Below are positions 1 to 7,315 of a stretch of DNA of 64,000 nt, piece after piece (position 1 is the stretch's first letter; every line of letters starts with the position of its first letter). The translations under genes and the position numbers were made by a program. Source of the stretch: Bacteroidales bacterium Phil6 (lineage in GTDB: Bacteria; Bacteroidota; Bacteroidia; Bacteroidales; F082); assembly GCA_002633315.1 (NCBI GenBank), contig NWBN01000015.1, positions 86,490-150,489 on the forward strand, read 5' to 3'. Below the pieces are notes generated by a model, which saw only the letters and a program-made list of their open reading frames with translations, had not been told where the DNA came from and made no database searches.

Positions 1-515
1 CTGTGGTGAAGTACTCTCCAACATGGTCGCGTAGTTTTATGCCGGTAAACCAGGAGATGAGAGAACATGTTGCCAAGATGAAACTCATTCCTAATAAGGC
101 TTTGTTGGAGGGTAAGTGTGTCGTGTTTTGCGATGATTCCATAGTACGTGGCACTCAACTTCGCGATAACGTCAAGATGCTGTATGATTGCGGTGCAAAA
201 GAGGTGCATATCCGCATTAGTTGTCCTCCGTTGATTTATGGCTGCAATTTCTTGAATTTTTCTGCTTCCAAAACGGAAATGGAGCTTATTACACGTCGCT
301 GCATCCAGGAACTTGAAGGCGATTCGACCAGAAATCTTGAGGCATATTGCGATTCTTCTACAAAAGAATATGCTAAGCTCGTTGAGATGCTGCGCCAACA
401 TATTGGTGTTGATAGTCTGAAATTTAATAAGTTGGATACAATATGCAATGCTATAGGTCTTAAAAAATGTGATGTTTGTACCCATTGTTTCGATGGTTCG
501 AGTTTTGGATATTGA
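1..515 (+). CDS. purF: Amidophosphoribosyltransferase, C-terminal part (5' end outside window)
   Basis: First committed enzyme of purine synthesis, converting PRPP and glutamine to phosphoribosylamine in the cytosol. Only the last 170 or so codons are in the window. The PRPP-binding loop VVFCDDSIVRGTQ is visible (about residues 40-52 of the visible part), followed by a stretch rich in conserved glycine and proline typical of the phosphoribosyltransferase fold. The tail carries CDVCTHC (Cys 156, 159, 162), resembling the C-terminal cysteine cluster that binds an iron-sulfur centre in Bacillus-type PurF; that role is inferred. The tail ends FDGSSFGY, as in Bacteroidetes versions. The reading frame runs in from base 3 without a start codon of its own. 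purC lies about 6 kb downstream, separated by unrelated genes. A terminator in a duplicated 100-bp block follows. Confidence 0.93.
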   Translation, partial: VVKYSPTWSRSFMPVNQEMREHVAKMKLIPNKALLEGKCVVFCDDSIVRGTQLRDNVKMLYDCGAKEVHIRISCPPLIYGCNFLNFSASKTEMELITRRCIQELEGDSTRNLEAYCDSSTKEYAKLVEMLRQHIGVDSLKFNKLDTICNAIGLKKCDVCTHCFDGSSFGY

Positions 516-547
516 CAATTGAAGGATATTTTATTTTGAAATTGGTT

Positions 548-647
548 ATTCCTTATATAATATGGACGTCTTAATGGGACGTCTTTTTTTCTACATTGCT
601 CAATATTTTTTATTATATAAAATACTTATTGTCAGTATGTTGAAAAA
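548..647. repeat. 100-bp direct repeat, copy 1 (contains purF terminator)
   Basis: This block recurs at 2741-2840 in the same orientation with one mismatch by eye (A at 555, G at 2748). Similarity continues weakly on both sides with small indels (TGGTT on the left, AAAATTATA on the right). The two copies bracket the AbiE genes. The block holds the purF terminator and an AT-rich tail ending GTCAGTATGTTGAAAAA. Confidence 0.97.
565..590 (+). terminator. Rho-independent terminator of purF
   Basis: GACGTC (565-570) pairs with GACGTC (578-583) across a 7-base loop and is followed directly by seven T. It lies 50 bases after the purF stop codon. Confidence 0.8.
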
Positions 648-663
648 ATTATATGACTTATAT

Positions 664-1680
664 TCATTTTTTTATTCTGTCATTCAAATCTCTTAGATTA
701 TTAATCAACTCTTCAAATGAAACAGATTCTCCGTATATCATATGCAAACGCATATTTTCATAATCAGCTTTCCATTGTTCTATGATAGTCTCAGGAGGAA
801 CGATGTTTAGCGAATCAGGATAAAGCGTATCGTAGTCAAATCCGCGCAAGCCAATGAATTTGCGACGATGTTCAACCACTTGACGGTAGAGCTGTTCGTT
901 ATGAATCGCTTTTTCCACAATAGGTGTTTTTAGCATCTGACCGATGTCATAAATATGCCGTGACATTCGTTCTACTCGAATCAAATCTTTTGGTTTGGCA
1001 AATTCTTCGTGCAATAGGAATAATTTTTCAAGGAATGTGCGTTCGGGAAGAACAGCCCGAACATTGAACTTCGGTTCTGCAAAGGGTGCTTTAGGATAAA
1101 CTTGGTCGATCATAGATTCAAGAGGGACTTCATTCACAGGCTCATTCATTGACCTGCCACTCACTTCCACTTTGACTTTGGATAGAACATATAAACCGTT
1201 TCCTCCATCAATAGAGAAAGTCAAGACAGAATCATAATTGATATTTATGGTTTCTGGGTCAGTGGTAGTGATATGAGTAATATCCACATTTACTTGAAAC
1301 TTGTTTTTTGCGATACCATTTTTGTGCAACTGTTCGGCAATGTCATGTTGCATGGTCTCTCTTACGAAAGAACATGTAGCCCGGCGCAATTTATCGCTGA
1401 TTTGTGTTTTAGATAAAGTACCGCTGAACCCCAGATATTCCCTATCAATGGTGATGTCTATATCTTCAGAAAAGCGATCAACCAAATGCCAACACTTGCT
1501 CAACGATGTGCCTCCCTTGAAAGACAAATGTTGAGCGTATGGCAGACTGTACATGGCTCGAAGGACTGCTGTTACCCACCAATCCTTTTCTATTACTTCT
1601 CGCTGTCGTATGTTCAGCTCAGTAGAAACACGATCAAGCACATCTGTGCGGTCCTCTTTTGACAAATCAATAAATTTCAT
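664..1680 (-). CDS. abiEii: AbiEii/AbiGii-type nucleotidyltransferase toxin
   Basis: Toxin half of an AbiE system, which aborts phage infection and also acts as a type IV toxin-antitoxin pair. Family members are DNA polymerase beta-like nucleotidyltransferases thought to modify RNA such as tRNA. Motifs visible: KGGTSLSK (motif I) followed about ten residues later by RFSEDIDI (acidic DxD metal site), then a lysine-containing strand VLSKVKVEVSG and a helix RTFLEKLFLLHEE that matches the C-terminal family motif. The ATG at 1680 overlaps the stop of the upstream antitoxin gene as ATGA, which argues for translational coupling and for a 338-residue product; an upstream ATG at 1704 would add eight residues. 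Catalytic residues look intact. The pair is a self-contained cassette between two 100-bp repeats. Confidence 0.92.
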   Translation of the reverse strand: MKFIDLSKEDRTDVLDRVSTELNIRQREVIEKDWWVTAVLRAMYSLPYAQHLSFKGGTSLSKCWHLVDRFSEDIDITIDREYLGFSGTLSKTQISDKLRRATCSFVRETMQHDIAEQLHKNGIAKNKFQVNVDITHITTTDPETININYDSVLTFSIDGGNGLYVLSKVKVEVSGRSMNEPVNEVPLESMIDQVYPKAPFAEPKFNVRAVLPERTFLEKLFLLHEEFAKPKDLIRVERMSRHIYDIGQMLKTPIVEKAIHNEQLYRQVVEHRRKFIGLRGFDYDTLYPDSLNIVPPETIIEQWKADYENMRLHMIYGESVSFEELINNLRDLNDRIKK

Positions 1681-2282
1681 CGTTGCAATATCATTTTTAT
1701 CCATGTAGGTGCAAGCACTATATCGTGATTAAAGTCTTGCTCCGAAACGTGTTCTGTTATCATATTCTTTATTTTCGCTATTTGCTCTTCTGTTATCAAT
1801 TTTTCACCAATCTCTCGCATGGCAAGTACTGCAAGCTGCATCAGTTTGGATTGATAAACGAAATTGCTTAAATCATTGCTATGACGAAATGTGATGCTTT
1901 TCCTTTCACCAAATTTAACCTGTCGCGCAGAACCGTCCGTTATGTAGATGATATTTGCCGGAACTTGCGTGGACAATCCTAGTTTATTAAGAGCGTAAGC
2001 TCCAGTCGGTATAATACGGGCGTTATCTCTCTTAGCTATTTTTTTAGCAATGGCATCCAATGAAGGCTCACGTAGTGTTCCATCCCATTTGTCGTACATT
2101 GGCACAAAATAAATACCTTTGGCAAAACGGTACAACTTTCCATTACGGCACAAACGAGTTAACCCTGAACGAACTGCATCGGGAGTACCATACGCAACGA
2201 AATCATCAGGAATGAAAATTGTTCCGATTCTTGCTTGTTCCACTATATCATACATAGCCTTGTAAGAACTGTTTGCACCCAT
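1677..2282 (-). CDS. abiEi: AbiEi-type antitoxin / DUF6088-like transcriptional regulator
   Basis: Antitoxin partner of AbiEii: a predicted N-terminal winged helix that represses its own promoter, followed by the domain that neutralises the toxin. The N-terminal part shows the family pattern: a short helix, then FIPDDFVAYG, RSGLTRLCRNGKLYRFAKGI (the wing, G-x-L-x-R-x-x-x-G-x-Y) and later PTGAYALNKLGLSTQVP, which is strongly typical of this family. The ATG at 2282 gives 201 residues. A GTG at 2300 in frame is rejected because it lies inside the predicted -7 element and operator at 2297-2321. It is co-transcribed with the toxin gene by a 4-base ATGA overlap. Family assignment is confident; the finer family name is less so. 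Confidence 0.88.
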   Translation of the reverse strand: MGANSSYKAMYDIVEQARIGTIFIPDDFVAYGTPDAVRSGLTRLCRNGKLYRFAKGIYFVPMYDKWDGTLREPSLDAIAKKIAKRDNARIIPTGAYALNKLGLSTQVPANIIYITDGSARQVKFGERKSITFRHSNDLSNFVYQSKLMQLAVLAMREIGEKLITEEQIAKIKNMITEHVSEQDFNHDIVLAPTWIKMILQR

Positions 2283-2296
2283 AGTCTTGAATTTTG

Positions 2297-2321
2297 CCAC
2301 AAAATTACATAATTTTTGTGG
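2297..2321 (-). promoter_or_regulatory. Promoter and predicted operator of the AbiE operon
   Basis: On the minus strand CCACAAAA, nine bases, TTTTGTGG forms a perfect 8-bp inverted repeat. A Bacteroidetes -7 element TAATTTTG (2307 to 2300) lies inside its downstream half, so a protein bound to the repeat would block transcription. AbiEi antitoxins are known to bind inverted repeats in their own promoter; that this is the site here is inferred. Confidence 0.6.
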
Positions 2322-2740
2322 TATTACATCATTCTTTTGATAGTTTTTTTATAAATTTTTGATTTTGTTTGCATATCAGGGTGGATGAAATATAAGCTAC
2401 TGCAAATGCGTTGTTTTTGTATCAAAAAAGTTTTTGAAAATACACTACATATATGCGATTGTTGGCTTATTGATGAGAATCTTGCAAGATTATTCAGAAA
2501 ACTCATGCTAAATTTCTGAAAAATACACTACCTTTGTAATGGTTTAACAATAAGCTGAAACAGAAGTGGAATATCAGAAACAAATTGCACTGAAAAAACA
2601 CCTATTATATGCTACTACGAGCGAGTTAAGAAACAATAGTATTATTAAATATTTTCCCTTTAGTTAGAAAGTACTCTTAAAGATTACGGCAATATTTCTA
2701 ATTTATTACTTACAAACTATTGAATAATAACTGGTTGTAA
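2322..2740. other. Gene-free stretch right of the AbiE genes
   Basis: No convincing protein gene is seen. A -7-like element TACCTTTG stands at 2529-2536 on the plus strand, with no clear -33 partner. A transcript from it would run about 240 bases into the second terminator copy at 2758-2783. The longest plus-strand frame inside it is about 33 codons (GTG near 2571) and is not recognisable. It may be a remnant of the cassette, a short RNA, or nothing functional. Confidence 0.4.
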
Positions 2741-2840
2741 ATTCCTTGTATAATATGGACGTCTTAATGGGACGTCTTTTTTTCTACATTGCTCAATATT
2801 TTTTATTATATAAAATACTTATTGTCAGTATGTTGAAAAA
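2741..2840. repeat. 100-bp direct repeat, copy 2
   Basis: Second copy of 548-647, offset exactly 2193 bases, same orientation, 99 of 100 bases identical by eye. It includes a second copy of the terminator (GACGTC at 2758-2763 and 2771-2776 followed by seven T). Confidence 0.97.
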
Positions 2841-2888
2841 TTTTTTAAAAAAATTATAAAATAATGTAGTTTATAAAATAAACTTGTT

Positions 2889-2896
2889 TATATTTG
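2889..2896 (+). promoter_or_regulatory. -7 element upstream of the 2968 gene
   Basis: TATATTTG matches TAnnTTTG; about 70 bases separate it from the ATG at 2968. No good -33 element is seen. Confidence 0.45.
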
Positions 2897-2967
2897 CAGC
2901 GTCAATGTTATTATCGCGATACATGGCATTAAATGTAAATTAATGTAGAATTTTAAAAATTAAAGTC

Positions 2968-3531
2968 ATGGAAATGAATGAATTAACACCTGAAAAAAGT
3001 ATTTGTTTGATATCTGAGATTATCAATCAAAGCAGAAAAGATTTTAAAATCAAGGCGGAAGTTCCCTTTTTATTATGGGGAGCCATAGTTATTGTGGTAT
3101 CTGCGGTTATATGGATTCTTGTTAATAAAACCGGTGACTATAGATGGAATTTTCTTTGGTTTGCCATTCCTGTTGTAGCTTATCCACTTAATGCATTGGT
3201 TTTAAGAAATAATGAACCTAAGGCAAAGTATTTTCTCAATGAATTGATAGGTTTGACTTGGATAATGTTCGGTATCATTTCATGTATATTGTCGTTGGTG
3301 CGTTTTTTTGTCACATTTGACGTGGTATCGTTGATATTGGTATTATTGGGATTTACAACAATTGTCAATGGTCTGATTATAAAGCACTATTATATCTCTG
3401 CATGTGGTATTATTGTTGCAATTTCAGGACCTGTTTTGTGTGCATTGTCAATAAATCCTTGTTTAATGATGATTTTTGGCTCGTTTTTTGCACTTCTTTT
3501 TCCGGGCATCATTCTTAAATGGAGTAAATGA
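2968..3531 (+). CDS. Uncharacterised multi-pass membrane protein
   Basis: A 187-residue protein with a short polar N-terminus (about 30 residues, MEMNELTPEKS onward) followed by five or six hydrophobic segments at about 33-52, 64-81, 95-115, 118-138, 140-160 and 163-184. No catalytic motif is recognised. Its stop codon overlaps the start of the winged-helix gene downstream (ATGA), so the two are probably co-translated. Small membrane proteins paired with a PadR/ArsR-like regulator occur in many Bacteroidetes; whether this pair senses or responds to membrane stress is not shown by the sequence. Confidence 0.7.
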   Translation: MEMNELTPEKSICLISEIINQSRKDFKIKAEVPFLLWGAIVIVVSAVIWILVNKTGDYRWNFLWFAIPVVAYPLNALVLRNNEPKAKYFLNELIGLTWIMFGIISCILSLVRFFVTFDVVSLILVLLGFTTIVNGLIIKHYYISACGIIVAISGPVLCALSINPCLMMIFGSFFALLFPGIILKWSK

Positions 3532-3821
3532 TTATGGAATTCAAGAAATTAGACCCAATACTTCATTCAGAGTTACGGTTGTCAATAATGTCGTTACTTT
3601 ATTATCTTGAAGAAGCGGATTTTACATATATTAAAGAAAAGACAGAGGCGACATCCGGTAATTTGAGTGTACAGCTCGACAAATTGTCGAATGTAGGGTA
3701 TATCAGTGTGGAAAAGACTTTTGCCGGGAAGAAACCTCGTACCGTATATCGCATCACTCCTGAAGGAAAAAAGGCTTTTGAAGATTATGTCGATGCCTTA
3801 AAATCTTATATTGGGAAGTAA
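3528..3821 (+). CDS. Winged-helix DNA-binding regulator (HTH_34-like)
   Basis: A 97-residue single-domain regulator. The pattern HSELRLSIMSLLYYLEEADFTY..KEKTEATSGNLSVQLDKLSNVGYISVEKTF gives helix-turn-helix, recognition helix (SGNLSVQLDKL) and then a basic wing GKKPRTVYRITPEG, ending in a helix EDYVDALKSYI that usually mediates dimerisation. This is the layout of the winged-helix family PF13601 (MarR/ArsR-like). It overlaps the preceding membrane-protein gene by four bases; a second ATG six bases later is also possible. It probably controls its own operon, which is inferred from the context only. Confidence 0.85.
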   Translation: MIMEFKKLDPILHSELRLSIMSLLYYLEEADFTYIKEKTEATSGNLSVQLDKLSNVGYISVEKTFAGKKPRTVYRITPEGKKAFEDYVDALKSYIGK

Positions 3822-3845
3822 ATATTATAGTAATCAAATGGTTGT

Positions 3846-3877
3846 ATCGGGTGTGGCAAATTGTTGTTACACCCGAT
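3846..3877. other. Stem-loop between convergent genes
   Basis: ATCGGGTGT (3846-3854) pairs perfectly with ACACCCGAT (3869-3877) across 14 bases. No T run follows on either strand, so it is not a standard terminator. It may still end transcription or stabilise the 3' end of the regulator mRNA. Confidence 0.45.
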
Positions 3878-3966
3878 AAATCCTGTCAATGTACATGTAG
3901 TGTTGAAATAATTATAATGGAATAAATGAATATGGCAGATGGCAGTAAAAGAAGGCAATATTCAAG

Positions 3967-4746
3967 TTATAAAAACTTGACAAACACATCGCTGTCAATA
4001 TTCAGTCCGAGTAATTCTGAAGCATTACCTCTGTTTATTGCGATTTCCAAAAAACCATGAGACCCGAACAGAGCCATGATATTCACATCTTTGGCATCTC
4101 TGTAGCAGTTGAGAATATCTTTGATTACATAATTTATGTTTGTAAAAGTTATATTGAAGTCACGTTTGTTCCTAACTTTATCAAACAGTTCTTTTGAGAT
4201 ATTGGTGATGAGGTTTTGGTAGTTGTCAATATAAATAACATAACCATGAATAAAGTTGGCATTGTATGTTGGTTGTAACGGAAAAATGATTTTCAACGAG
4301 TTATGGGGATTCCCTATTTCCGACAATTGGCAGCCTGAAGCGAGCATGCTGGCGACTTTGGCGAAACGATCGCGACTGCTGAAGGTGAAATAACCTGTAT
4401 CCTGAGGTATTTCAATGGTAACTGCCTCATAAGGAGTATCTCCGATAATGATAGAAAAAATGCCGTTGTCGCAACCGATAAAATAATGTCCATCTGCCTT
4501 TACAACTATATGTGAAAATTCATCACTTTCTTCGGTATCTATGCCAAGAATGTGTATGGTACCTTCGGGAAAGTTTTTATAACAATTTTTAACAATAAAA
4601 CCGGCATTCCTCAGATCGAATGGTGTAATGTTATGAGTTATGTCAACAATGACGGCTTGCGGGCAATAGGAGTAAATAACCCCTTTTACTGCACCAACAT
4701 AATAGTCTGATAATCCCCAGTCGCTTGTTAATGTGATGATTGCCAT
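3967..4746 (-). CDS. DUF62-family (SAM hydrolase/chlorinase-fluorinase-like) protein
   Basis: A 259-residue protein of the S-adenosyl-methionine hydroxide adenosyltransferase family (DUF62). Family marks seen: ITLTSDWG at residues 4-11 (conserved Asp for the adenosine ribose), AVIVDITHNI at 31-40, YFIGCDNGIFS near 88-98 and, in the C-terminal domain, YIDNYQNLITNIS. The usual DPGVG segment is replaced by IDTEESD and the usual FHGRD by FSSRD, so the catalytic Arg and His described for archaeal SAM hydrolases appear absent. The fold assignment is firm; SAM hydrolysis is uncertain. It is transcribed divergently from phoH. Confidence 0.85.
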   Translation of the reverse strand: MAIITLTSDWGLSDYYVGAVKGVIYSYCPQAVIVDITHNITPFDLRNAGFIVKNCYKNFPEGTIHILGIDTEESDEFSHIVVKADGHYFIGCDNGIFSIIIGDTPYEAVTIEIPQDTGYFTFSSRDRFAKVASMLASGCQLSEIGNPHNSLKIIFPLQPTYNANFIHGYVIYIDNYQNLITNISKELFDKVRNKRDFNITFTNINYVIKDILNCYRDAKDVNIMALFGSHGFLEIAINRGNASELLGLNIDSDVFVKFL

Positions 4747-4786
4747 GAAAAACCTTTATGTTATTTTTTGTTGTACAATAGATATG

Positions 4787-4794
4787 CAAAAATA
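4787..4794 (-). promoter_or_regulatory. -7 element of the DUF62 gene
   Basis: TATTTTTG on the minus strand, 40 bases upstream of the ATG at 4746. Confidence 0.55.
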
Positions 4795-4876
4795 CGTTTT
4801 TATATAAAATATAAGAATTAAAAAAAAATTTTTGTAAACATTTTTTCAAAGGTTTTATAATGTGGTTTTTCATTAG

Positions 4877-4884
4877 TATCTTTG
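4877..4884 (+). promoter_or_regulatory. -7 element of phoH operon
   Basis: TATCTTTG, 24 bases before the ATG at 4909. It overlaps a possible TTG start at 4882, which is therefore rejected. Confidence 0.65.
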
Positions 4885-4908
4885 TGCCGCATTTGTAAAA
4901 TAAAAACA

Positions 4909-5898
4909 ATGGCAGAACAGATAATTCAAATTGAAAATGTTAATCCCGGCGAGCTTTATGGACCTAATGACCAAAATCTCAACATGGTGAGGTCTTTATT
5001 TCCGAAATTGAAAATCATAGTTCGCGGTGATTTTGTGAAAGTCATTGGTGAGGATGAAGAGGTTGAATATTTCTTGTCGCGTTTTGTCATGTTGGTTAAT
5101 CATTTGGAACGTTATGGCAGTGTAAATGCTCAAGTCATTGAAGATATTATGTTATCTGTCAATTCTGATGCTGTTAAGAGTATGGATAATGACGATGTCC
5201 TGGTGTTTGGACGTAATGGTTTACAAATAAAAGCATTGACAGTAAATCAAAAACGTATGGTGAAAGCATGTGCCAGTAAGGACATGGTTTTTGCTATAGG
5301 TCCTGCGGGTACAGGAAAGACCTATACTGCTGTGGCTTTAGCGGTGAGAGCTTTGAAAAACAGAGAGGTTCGACGCATTATCTTGACGCGTCCGGCAGTG
5401 GAAGCCGGTGAGAATCTCGGTTTTTTGCCGGGAGACCTTAAAGAAAAACTCGACCCTTATCTGCAACCTCTTTATGATGCCTTGCGCGATATGCTGCCTC
5501 AACAGAAATTGCAGAATTACATTGAGGACGGTACTATTGAGATAGCACCTCTCGCCTTTATGAGAGGTCGTACTCTCGACCATGCTTTCGTGATACTCGA
5601 TGAGGCTCAAAATGCTACACGTTCCCAACTGAAAATGTTTCTTACAAGGATGGGACGTTCAGCCAAATTTGTCATAACCGGTGATATTACTCAAATAGAT
5701 TTGCCAAAAAATCAACCTTCAGGACTGCCTGTTGCAATAAATATCCTTGCTGAGGTCAAGGGCATAGAATTTATCTTTCTTGACGAAAAAGATGTGGTCC
5801 GACATAAACTTGTCACTGATATCGTCAATGCTTATAAACGCTATTATCAGCAACAGGATAATGAGATGGAACAAAATTCTGATGAAATGAATTATTAG
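4909..5898 (+). CDS. phoH: PhoH family ATPase
   Basis: PhoH-like P-loop ATPase of 329 residues, cytosolic, a family linked to RNA metabolism and phosphate starvation. Walker A GPAGTGKT lies at residues 131-138 and Walker B VILDEAQ at 228-234, followed by the sensor motif TGDITQIDLP at 257-266. An N-terminal region of about 110 residues resembles the KH-like part of PhoH proteins. The start at 4909 fits the -7 element at 4877-4884. The gene heads a run with an unknown gene (15 bases further) and purC (25 bases further), all on the plus strand. Confidence 0.95.
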   Translation: MAEQIIQIENVNPGELYGPNDQNLNMVRSLFPKLKIIVRGDFVKVIGEDEEVEYFLSRFVMLVNHLERYGSVNAQVIEDIMLSVNSDAVKSMDNDDVLVFGRNGLQIKALTVNQKRMVKACASKDMVFAIGPAGTGKTYTAVALAVRALKNREVRRIILTRPAVEAGENLGFLPGDLKEKLDPYLQPLYDALRDMLPQQKLQNYIEDGTIEIAPLAFMRGRTLDHAFVILDEAQNATRSQLKMFLTRMGRSAKFVITGDITQIDLPKNQPSGLPVAINILAEVKGIEFIFLDEKDVVRHKLVTDIVNAYKRYYQQQDNEMEQNSDEMNY

Positions 5899-5913
5899 CT
5901 AACATATAGTATT

Positions 5914-6339
5914 ATGCATATTCATGAATTGCAAAGTCATTTTATCCCTCATATACTAAAACTTGTAGAGGACCAATTTGTCGATGCCAATGCTTTGACT
6001 GATATTGACTTCTGGAAACGTTTTATGAAAAACAACAATATGGAGGTTGATTTCTCATGGGATGACATATCTGTAGATTGTCAACCTCTTGACGAAATGA
6101 TAACACTGATATTTTATTCATTTCCCATGCCTTATGTCGTCTCGGAAGCAAGATACGGGTTGATATTCATCAATCTTTATAATCCTAAATTTCATTATTA
6201 TCTTCTTGAGATGGCTTCGGAAGATAAATGGATTCTCAGCGAACTTGCTACAGACGAGTCTCGTAAAGAACATGGTTATTTTGAAGGAGAGCCTACGGCT
6301 GCTGAGTTTGTCAATAAGATCTTTGAATTGGAGAAGTAA
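5914..6339 (+). CDS. Uncharacterised protein between phoH and purC
   Basis: A 141-residue acidic soluble protein. No known motif is recognised. It has no signal peptide and no membrane segment. The segment FPMPYVVSEARYGLIFIN...FHYYLLEMASEDKWILSE looks like a compact alpha/beta domain with alternating hydrophobic strands. It begins 15 bases after the phoH stop and ends 25 bases before purC, so it is probably part of the same transcript. Confidence 0.75.
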   Translation: MHIHELQSHFIPHILKLVEDQFVDANALTDIDFWKRFMKNNNMEVDFSWDDISVDCQPLDEMITLIFYSFPMPYVVSEARYGLIFINLYNPKFHYYLLEMASEDKWILSELATDESRKEHGYFEGEPTAAEFVNKIFELEK

Positions 6340-6364: not shown

Positions 6365-7315
6365 ATGAATGTATTAACAAGAACTGATTTTAATTTTGCC
6401 GGACAGACCAAGGTCTATCATGGCAAAGTCCGTGATGTCTATTTTATAGATGACAAATATCTCGTCATGGTAGCCACTGACCGTATCTCGGCTTTTGACG
6501 TTATTCTTCCGGAAGGTATTCCTTACAAAGGACAGGTGTTGAATCAAATTGCGTCGGCTTTTCTCGATGAGACAGCAGATATTGTTCCGAATTGGAAAAT
6601 TGCGACTCCCGACCCAATGGTGACTGTAGGTCATTTATGCAAACCCTTTCCTGTAGAGATGATTATTCGCGGTTATCTTACCGGAAGTTCATGGCGTACT
6701 TATAAAAGCGGACAGCATACTATATGTGGCGTGCAAATTCCTGATGGAATGAAGGAACACCAACGATTCGACGAGCCTGTTATTACTCCAACGACAAAAG
6801 CAGAAGAGGGACATGATGAAGATATTTCCCGCGATGAGATAATACGACAAGGACTCATAAGTGAGTCTGATTATATTCAGATAGAAGATATTACAAGAAA
6901 ACTGTTTCGACGTGGCACAGAGATAGCTGCAAAACATGGTCTTATTCTTGTTGATACCAAATATGAGTTCGGCAAGATAGGCGACACTATATATCTTATG
7001 GATGAAATTCACACACCGGATTCTTCGCGCTATTTTATAGCAGACAGATATGAAGAATGTTTTGCAAAAGGTCTGCCGCAAAAACAGTTGTCGAAGGAAT
7101 TTGTACGAGAATGGCTTATGGAGAACGGTTTTCAAGGTAAAGAAGGTCAAAAGATTCCTGAAATGACTCCTGCTATAGTCAAAAATATTTCAGACCGTTA
7201 TATTGAATTGTTTGAAAAAGTTACCGGAGAGAAGTTTGTGAAAGCTGATGATTCAGATGACATTATTAAAAGGATAGAAAACAATATCAATAACTTCCTT
7301 AAGCAATACCGCTGA
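6365..7315 (+). CDS. purC: Phosphoribosylaminoimidazole-succinocarboxamide synthase
   Basis: SAICAR synthase: joins aspartate to CAIR in purine synthesis, using ATP. At 316 residues it is the longer form common in Bacteroidetes. Signature regions: [10 protein letters not shown] at residues 17-26 (ATP-binding loop), ATDRISAFD at 37-45, then the nucleotide-site strand [16 protein letters not shown] and, later, LVDTKYEFG and [12 protein letters not shown]. The ATG at 6365 is chosen over an in-frame TTG two codons earlier. It is last in the phoH run and is followed by a strong hairpin shared with the convergent gene. Confidence 0.97.

What the first reader, a model, noticed from the sequence alone, without database searches (positions are those of the whole stretch)
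548..2840. AbiE defence cassette bracketed by duplicated purF terminator
An AbiEi/AbiEii pair sits between two direct copies of a 100-bp block (548-647 and 2741-2840, one mismatch by eye). The block carries the purF terminator. Target duplications of transposons are far shorter than 100 bp, and no integrase is in the 2.2-kb unit. It looks like a minimal island that entered at, or was captured between, copies of a terminator, possibly mobilised in trans or moved by homologous recombination. It could be excised by recombination between the repeats, leaving one purF terminator.
Basis: partly seen in the sequence, partly recalled or inferred. Interest (0 to 1): 0.7.

Follow-up and report, generated by a model that had tools for sequence, protein, structure and literature searches.

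The report
Toxin–antitoxin cassette inserted by target duplication
A two-gene toxin–antitoxin (AbiE) cassette in a Bacteroidales genome sits between two 100-base copies of the sequence behind a purine-synthesis gene, and because a second AbiE pair in the same genome and about one in eight related cassettes are also bracketed by direct repeats, such cassettes likely enter genomes without a transposase by duplicating the stretch they land in.

Summary
548-647 and 2741-2840 are direct repeats (100 bp, one mismatch), each with a terminator hairpin, around an AbiEi/AbiEii pair with no recombinase. The block occurs only twice in the 2.59-Mb genome. The cassette is self-contained: predicted operator palindrome (2297-2321), AbiEi, then AbiEii with an ATGA overlap; DNA similarity to the 16 closest cassettes, all in other contexts, ends at this unit. 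The pattern recurs. A second AbiE pair in this genome lies at the junction of a 761-bp, 96% direct duplication that includes a truncated neighbour gene. Of 105 distinct AbiE cassettes, 13 have a tight two-copy direct repeat (28-761 bp), against 3 of 2045 control intervals and 0 of 25 purF intervals; two of the 13 repeats have copies elsewhere in the genus. This fits 'insertion with long target duplication', known for restriction-modification genes and, in my nine searches, not reported for AbiE. No empty allele could be examined (one genome per species), so insertion itself, its enzymology and RecA excision stay inferred. Best reading, 0.6: transposase-free insertion with long target duplication.

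The parts
3..515 (+). 3' end of purF (its open frame of 476 aa begins before the window)
548..647 (+). direct repeat copy 1, 33 bp behind the purF stop, with terminator-like hairpin 564-584 and T-run
664..1680 (-). abiEii, toxin; nucleotidyltransferase motif GG-x15-DID (G64 G65 ... D81 I82 D83 in the 346-aa numbering)
   Evidence: motif definition from PMC3985639 passages
1677..2282 (-). abiEi, antitoxin (DUF6088), 201 aa; stop overlaps the abiEii start (ATGA)
2297..2321 (-). predicted AbiEi operator: palindrome CCACAAA-N11-TTTGTGG overlapping a TAnnTTTG promoter element (2300-2307; the motif is recalled)
2322..2740 (.). spacer of unknown origin inside the insert; no matching DNA in the relatives' AbiE loci
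   Evidence: similarity ends at 2317-2369
2741..2840 (+). direct repeat copy 2 with hairpin 2757-2777
2968..3531 (+). 187-aa membrane-type protein behind copy 2, outside the unit
   Evidence: (no Pfam family)
3528..3821 (+). 97-aa winged-helix regulator (HTH_34, PadR-like), outside the unit

Best explanation
A self-contained AbiE toxin–antitoxin cassette lies between two 100-bp direct copies of the DNA that follows purF, and it likely came in as a transposase-free insertion that duplicated its target, the process called insertion with long target duplication. Shown: the repeats, the two genes, the absence of a recombinase gene in the unit, the recurrence of direct repeats of 28-761 bp around other AbiE cassettes, and a second case in the same genome in which the AbiE pair fills the junction of a 761-bp duplication. 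Inferred: a piece of foreign DNA of about 1.7-2.1 kb was joined into a local tandem duplication, for example when two arms broken at different points were linked through it by end joining or template switching. The duplication would leave both neighbours intact (here each side keeps a terminator), the cassette would be expressed at once from its own predicted operator-promoter, and the toxin would penalise loss by recombination between the repeats. The repeats would still allow deletion, amplification or re-insertion by RecA.
For: Block in two copies only. Similarity of the 16 closest cassettes ends at 648-706 and 2317-2369, so the unit is operator plus two genes; conserved palindrome upstream of AbiEi in 17 aligned cassettes, strong palindromes upstream in 75 of 100 cassettes against 24 of 100 downstream. 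Second AbiE pair in the genome between 761-bp, 96% direct repeats, the left copy holding only the last 50 codons of the gene that is complete at the right copy; five relatives have one copy of the duplicated gene. Strict two-copy repeats in 13 of 105 AbiE groups against 3 of 2045 intervals in 79 of the same loci and 0 of 25 purF intervals. Insert sizes 1678-1944 bp in 11 of 13. P. uenonis and P. somerae share the cassette over 1716 bp (94.6%) and nothing else of the 3.7 kb compared. Contig ends within 500 bp of the cassette in 9 of 59 contigs of 10 kb or more, 2.05 expected. 17 of 38 near-identical AbiEii proteins have a longest contig of 2161-2233 bp, about the 2193-bp unit. Precedent for restriction-modification genes.
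Against: No allele without the cassette was seen; the nearest relatives that keep purF next to SamHyd lack the block itself as well as mem187 and PadR (9 of 29 loci). 92 of 105 groups show no strict repeat (decayed, other route, or short flank). L070 and L073 repeats have copies in other genomes of the genus, and the near-identical cassette L069 lacks the repeat found at L070. The L143 repeat also occurs without AbiE. Repeat ends decay in the window, and 419 bp of the insert are not part of the shared unit. The strict rule caps the insert at cassette plus 1 kb, so uniform insert size is partly built in. Control intervals overlap and are not gene-aligned. Other AbiEii families: 0 of 30.
Confidence: 0.6

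Rival explanations
1. Exchange of a pre-made unit by homologous recombination: a circle or fragment carrying AbiE plus one block, excised from a repeat-flanked copy in another strain, recombined with the single resident block and left two copies.
For: Repeats of 100 and 761 bp are long enough for RecA; unit-length contigs would also fit a circle.
Against: Needs an earlier event that made the first repeat-flanked copy; many repeats of the family are only 28-41 bp. The block was not found elsewhere.
Confidence: 0.2
2. Site-specific integration in trans: a tyrosine recombinase of another element integrates the cassette at gene 3' ends, and the repeats are its att sites.
For: Several repeats restore a gene 3' end or terminator, as att sites of islands do (window; L066; L123).
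Against: No integrase in the unit; repeats of different loci are unrelated in sequence and range from 28 to 761 bp. Integrases elsewhere in the genome were not searched.
Confidence: 0.07
3. Capture between two older copies of a terminator or dispersed repeat, with no duplication at insertion.
For: Repeats of L070 and L073 have copies elsewhere in the genus; relatives offer no single-block state to compare.
Against: The window block and the L066 repeat have just two copies in the own genome; the truncated gene copy in L066 points to a duplication with the cassette at its junction.
Confidence: 0.1
4. Assembly artefact: the second block is a misjoin.
For: Draft genome in 34 contigs.
Against: The copies differ by one base and have different outer flanks; 17 of 38 near-identical proteins lie on contigs of about unit length, as expected if repeats break assemblies; a longest contig of 287,255 bp is listed both for an AbiEii copy and for the gene behind copy 2.
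Confidence: 0.03

Closest known systems
Insertion with long target duplication of restriction-modification genes (Nobusato et al. 2000, Gene 259:99-108; known here only through passages of PMC1643837, PMC3874152 and PMC3031569)
   Same: Addiction-type gene pair without its own transposase between long, variable direct repeats (order of 100 bp) of local DNA.
   Different: Cargo is an AbiE toxin–antitoxin pair in Bacteroidota; no pair of alleles with and without the insert was available here.
AbiE type IV toxin–antitoxin systems (PMC3985639, abstract and passages)
   Same: Two-gene operon, DUF1814-type nucleotidyltransferase toxin with hG[G/S]x15DhD motif, antitoxin regulator gene upstream, inverted repeats in the promoter.
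   Different: Antitoxin is of the DUF6088 type; a single palindrome overlaps the promoter element; flanking direct repeats are not described in the passages I saw.
Genomic islands integrated at gene 3' ends by tyrosine recombinases (recalled)
   Same: Direct repeats that give the target gene its 3' end or terminator back.
   Different: No integrase in the unit, no common att sequence, repeat length differs between loci.
Direct repeats near a toxin–antitoxin region in Mycoplasma mycoides subsp. capri (PMC8562856, passages)
   Same: Region I of that paper has two direct repeats and also holds an AbiEii/AbiEi-like pair.
   Different: The passage ties the repeats to another module (TA132/3) and does not describe target duplication.

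Membership tests
AbiE type IV toxin–antitoxin | AbiEii nucleotidyltransferase of PF08843 with hG[G/S]x15DhD | tested here: met
   PF08843 125.7 bits; PADLOC AbiEii 337 bits; KGG-x15-DID in the sequence, motif
AbiE type IV toxin–antitoxin | AbiEi-type antitoxin gene directly upstream in one operon | tested here: met
   PADLOC AbiEi 189 bits, PF19570 167 bits; ATGA overlap
AbiE type IV toxin–antitoxin | Inverted repeats in the promoter bound by AbiEi | tested here: inconclusive
   Palindrome present and conserved (the window's own scores 8, just under the cut of 9); binding not tested
AbiE type IV toxin–antitoxin | Toxicity, neutralisation, phage resistance | not testable with these tools
   needs the bench
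Insertion with long target duplication | Long, variable direct repeats around the insert | tested here: met
   100 bp in the window, 28-761 bp in 13 of 105 groups
Insertion with long target duplication | No transposase or integrase gene in the insert | tested here: met
   only the two genes exceed 80 aa
Insertion with long target duplication | Related genome with a single target copy and no insert | tested here: inconclusive
   no such genome held; L066 shows it indirectly by a truncated gene copy
Classical transposon | Transposase, terminal inverted repeats, short target duplication | tested here: not met
   no transposase ORF; no inverted-repeat pair joins the two ends of the insert among the 25 longest of 45 listed; repeat is 100 bp
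Integrase-borne island | Integrase gene in the element | tested here: not met
Integron gene cassette | attC site and integron integrase | not tested
   attC structure was not searched; no integrase in the unit

The most novel reading that the evidence does not exclude
Small abortive-infection and toxin–antitoxin modules of Bacteroidota are a class of transposase-free mobile addiction units: operator plus two genes move as a bare 1.7-kb cassette and regularly enter by building a local tandem duplication around themselves, so that both neighbours stay intact and recombinational loss is punished by the toxin.
Probability: 0.35. Interest if true: 0.75.

Novelty: new variant of a known kind. Interest (0 to 1): 0.5.

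Why it matters
How defence genes without transposases spread is an open question. If AbiE and similar modules use long target duplication, as restriction-modification genes are thought to, then repeat-bounded cassettes can be found by a simple scan, their empty sites sought in strain sets, and the insertion step tested in ordinary laboratory strains. It would also explain why assemblies tend to break around such genes.

Tried and rejected
Block as a genome-wide repeat: rejected. Block in viral contigs: 0 exact matches to a 50-base stretch. Viral carriage of this AbiE: 4 stretches matched a pattern, none encodes a relative; 4 of 50,697 phage records (20.8-37.3% identity) and 388 of 72,556 plasmid records, 387 of them below 60% identity, hold an AbiEii relative. 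Known RNA in window 1-5000: none at E 1. Using contig counts of AbiEii against its neighbours to estimate how often the cassette is absent: dropped, since the counts are not comparable between proteins.

Empty sites: purF loci of relatives; the duplicated gene of L066 in relatives (single copies in other contexts); L072's neighbour (28 of 60 genomes match, a paralogous family, not followed further); a neighbour gene in Porphyromonas (5 of 26 genomes; the repeat has three copies in L143 and occurs without AbiE in L324 and L325, so L143 is not counted as target duplication); L207's left flank in its genus (2 of 5 genomes, one being the genome itself, the other a partial match).

Looser counts made first: 14 of 90 loci against 17 of 2106 intervals; 19 of 105 groups against 26 of 1235 intervals at 36 bits; at that cut Abi_2 6 of 30, Fic 2 of 30, other AbiEii 3 of 30, against 3, 1 and 0 of 30 under the strict rule. 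One of the three Abi_2 loci (L248) looks like a tandem copy of the gene beside a run of N. Any copy number, strict distances: 17 of 105 groups against 16 of 2045 intervals. Left out before the AbiE count: L067 (same place as the window), L079 (broken relic), and the partial or weak AbiEii hits (L047-L054, L057-L059, L061-L063). A group counted as positive if any member was. In some searches the bounds of Abi_2, Fic and other AbiEii genes were guessed from open frames, and the middle of a locus was used where it was cut short.

Full report
Observation. 548-650 and 2741-2843 are the longest direct repeat of window 1-6000 (103 nt, 98%), or 100 bp at 99% as BLAST trims them, with an identical 92-bp core. 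Each holds a hairpin followed by a T-run. The genome (2,591,650 bases, 34 contigs) has just these two copies; of 59 other genomes searched, two have weak partial matches. Between the copies lie AbiEii and AbiEi, and no other ORF above 80 aa.

What the cassette is. AbiEi and AbiEii overlap by ATGA; the likely starts are 2282 and 1680. Upstream DNA of 17 cassettes (the window and its 16 closest relatives by DNA) shows a palindrome CCACAAA-N11-TTTGTGG overlapping a TAnnTTTG element, followed within about 20 bases by the start codon, and no similarity further upstream. In a wider set, 75 of 100 cassettes have a palindrome scoring 9 or more in the upstream stretch, against 24 of 100 downstream; the window's own scores 8; in the 60 rows printed the two arms change together between cassettes (CCAC/GTGG, GTCG/CGAC, GTCC/GGAC). 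I read this as the AbiEi operator, in line with AbiEi autoregulation through inverted repeats (PMC3985639, passages). DNA shared with the 16 closest cassettes begins at 648-706 and ends at 2317-2369, so the unit that recurs in other genomes is the operator plus two genes, about 1.66 kb. L143 and L145 (Porphyromonas uenonis and P. somerae) show the same: 1716 bp at 94.6% and no other match in the 3.7 kb compared.

Surroundings. In 9 of the 29 relatives' purF loci read, purF (82-85% identical as protein) is followed within about 20 bp by the convergent SamHyd gene; none of the 29 loci has a match to AbiE, mem187 or PadR97. So the purF-SamHyd interval has grown in this lineage, and no held genome shows a single block.

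Is it a pattern? A second AbiE pair in the same genome (L066; toxin 40% identical) lies between direct repeats of 761 bp, 96% identical. The right copy continues into a complete gene (o172), while the left copy holds only its last 50 codons, so the AbiE pair sits at the junction of a local duplication. I then used 124 cassettes: the window, L066, 13 stretches, the 80 loci and 29; they form 105 groups at 95% identity. Strict rule: exactly two copies, both within 500 bp of the genes, at least 44 bits. Positive: 13 of 105 groups (12 of 104 without the window), against 3 of 2045 same-length intervals from 79 of the same loci and 0 of 25 purF-centred intervals; Fisher p 2e-15. The intervals overlap one another and are not gene-aligned, so p is only a guide. 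The repeats of different loci are unrelated: 34 bp perfect in Candidatus Symbiothrix (L126) and in Phocaeicola sartorii (L088), 29 bp perfect in a Prevotella MAG (L087), the last 78 bp of a 613-aa gene (L123), 345 bp of a gene that reads like a phosphoesterase (L207, not tested). In 11 of 13 the insert is 1678-1944 bp, hardly more than the cassette, though the rule caps it at cassette plus 1 kb. Two repeats (L070, L073) are also seen elsewhere in the genus, so 11 is a safer count; a near-identical cassette to L070 (L069) has no such repeat. Abi_2 (3 of 30, one of them doubtful) and Fic (1 of 30) show it too; other AbiEii do not (0 of 30).

Assembly traces. Of the 38 full-length AbiEii proteins listed at 99-100% identity, 17 have a longest contig of 2161-2233 bp, eight of them exactly 2183, near the 2193-bp unit (only the best 120 of 7736 hits are listed). 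Of 59 GTDB contigs of 10 kb or more, 9 end within 500 bp of the cassette, 2.05 expected; over all 80, 16 against 8.5. Both fit repeats that break assemblies; neither separates a chromosomal copy from a circle.

Mechanism. No gene in the unit can move it. Long and variable target duplications are described for restriction-modification genes (passages of PMC1643837; PMC3874152; PMC3031569; the original paper of 2000 was not read). L066 shows the product: a duplicated stretch of neighbouring DNA with the cassette at its junction. I infer capture of foreign DNA during a local tandem duplication and retention because both neighbours stay intact, the cassette has its own promoter, and the toxin penalises loss; that AbiE can stabilise plasmids is stated in the abstract of PMC3985639. 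The joining step, excision and circles are untested.

Literature. Nine searches listed no paper on long target duplication around AbiE; only openly licensed papers are held, and I judged by listings and passages. PMC8562856 (passages) mentions two direct repeats in a mycoplasma TA region that also holds an AbiE-like pair.

Host. Two contigs of the genus mate G003 (4896 and 4123 bp) are identical to records of 'bacterium F082' (L064 = L104, L065 = L113), and G517 in the same order carries a cassette grouped with Porphyromonas uenonis; so the host is a Bacteroidales bacterium in the genus of F082 (inference).

Verdict. A real feature, best read as insertion with long target duplication carrying a toxin–antitoxin unit: a new variant of a known kind. 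The missing empty allele keeps confidence at 0.6.

Noticed in passing
L153 7264-12220 (Flavobacterium sp. xlx-214): An AbiE pair lies between one solitary, complete CRISPR-type repeat (7264-7313) and the degenerate end repeat of a regular 40-repeat array with 80-bp period; Cas1-, Cas2- and Cas9-like ORFs follow the array (names from reading the ORFs, not tested). The operator palindrome starts about 30 bp behind the solitary repeat.
   Followed up: partly
window 2427-2448 and 2510-2531, + strand: Two 82% identical copies of a 22-bp stretch ending in AAAATACACTAC or AAAAATACACTAC, the second leading into TACCTTTG, a promoter-like element that points towards the terminator of copy 2: a possible short RNA of about 250 nt (no Rfam match).
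   Followed up: no
window 2968-3531: The 187-aa membrane-type protein behind copy 2 has only two hits at E 1e-3, both 100% identical over the match, in the 5.8-billion-protein search, 271 and 2 contigs: a near-orphan gene next to a PadR-like regulator.
   Followed up: no
G000:C29:61674-62095 (L061, L062): A third, broken AbiEii relic in the same genome: first part and last part of the protein side by side, with stops in the second piece.
   Followed up: no
L244 1096-1194/2504-2602; L282 938-980/2252-2294; L290 1050-1094/2294-2338: An Abi_2 gene and two Fic genes also lie between direct repeats of 99, 43 and 45 bp; the first two repeats hold a TAnnTTTG-type element and the third a hairpin with A- and T-runs, by eye.
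   Followed up: partly
L064 and L065 (G003): A genus mate has two related AbiE cassettes (62 and 63% identical to the window's toxin) on separate short contigs of 4896 and 4123 bp.
   Followed up: no
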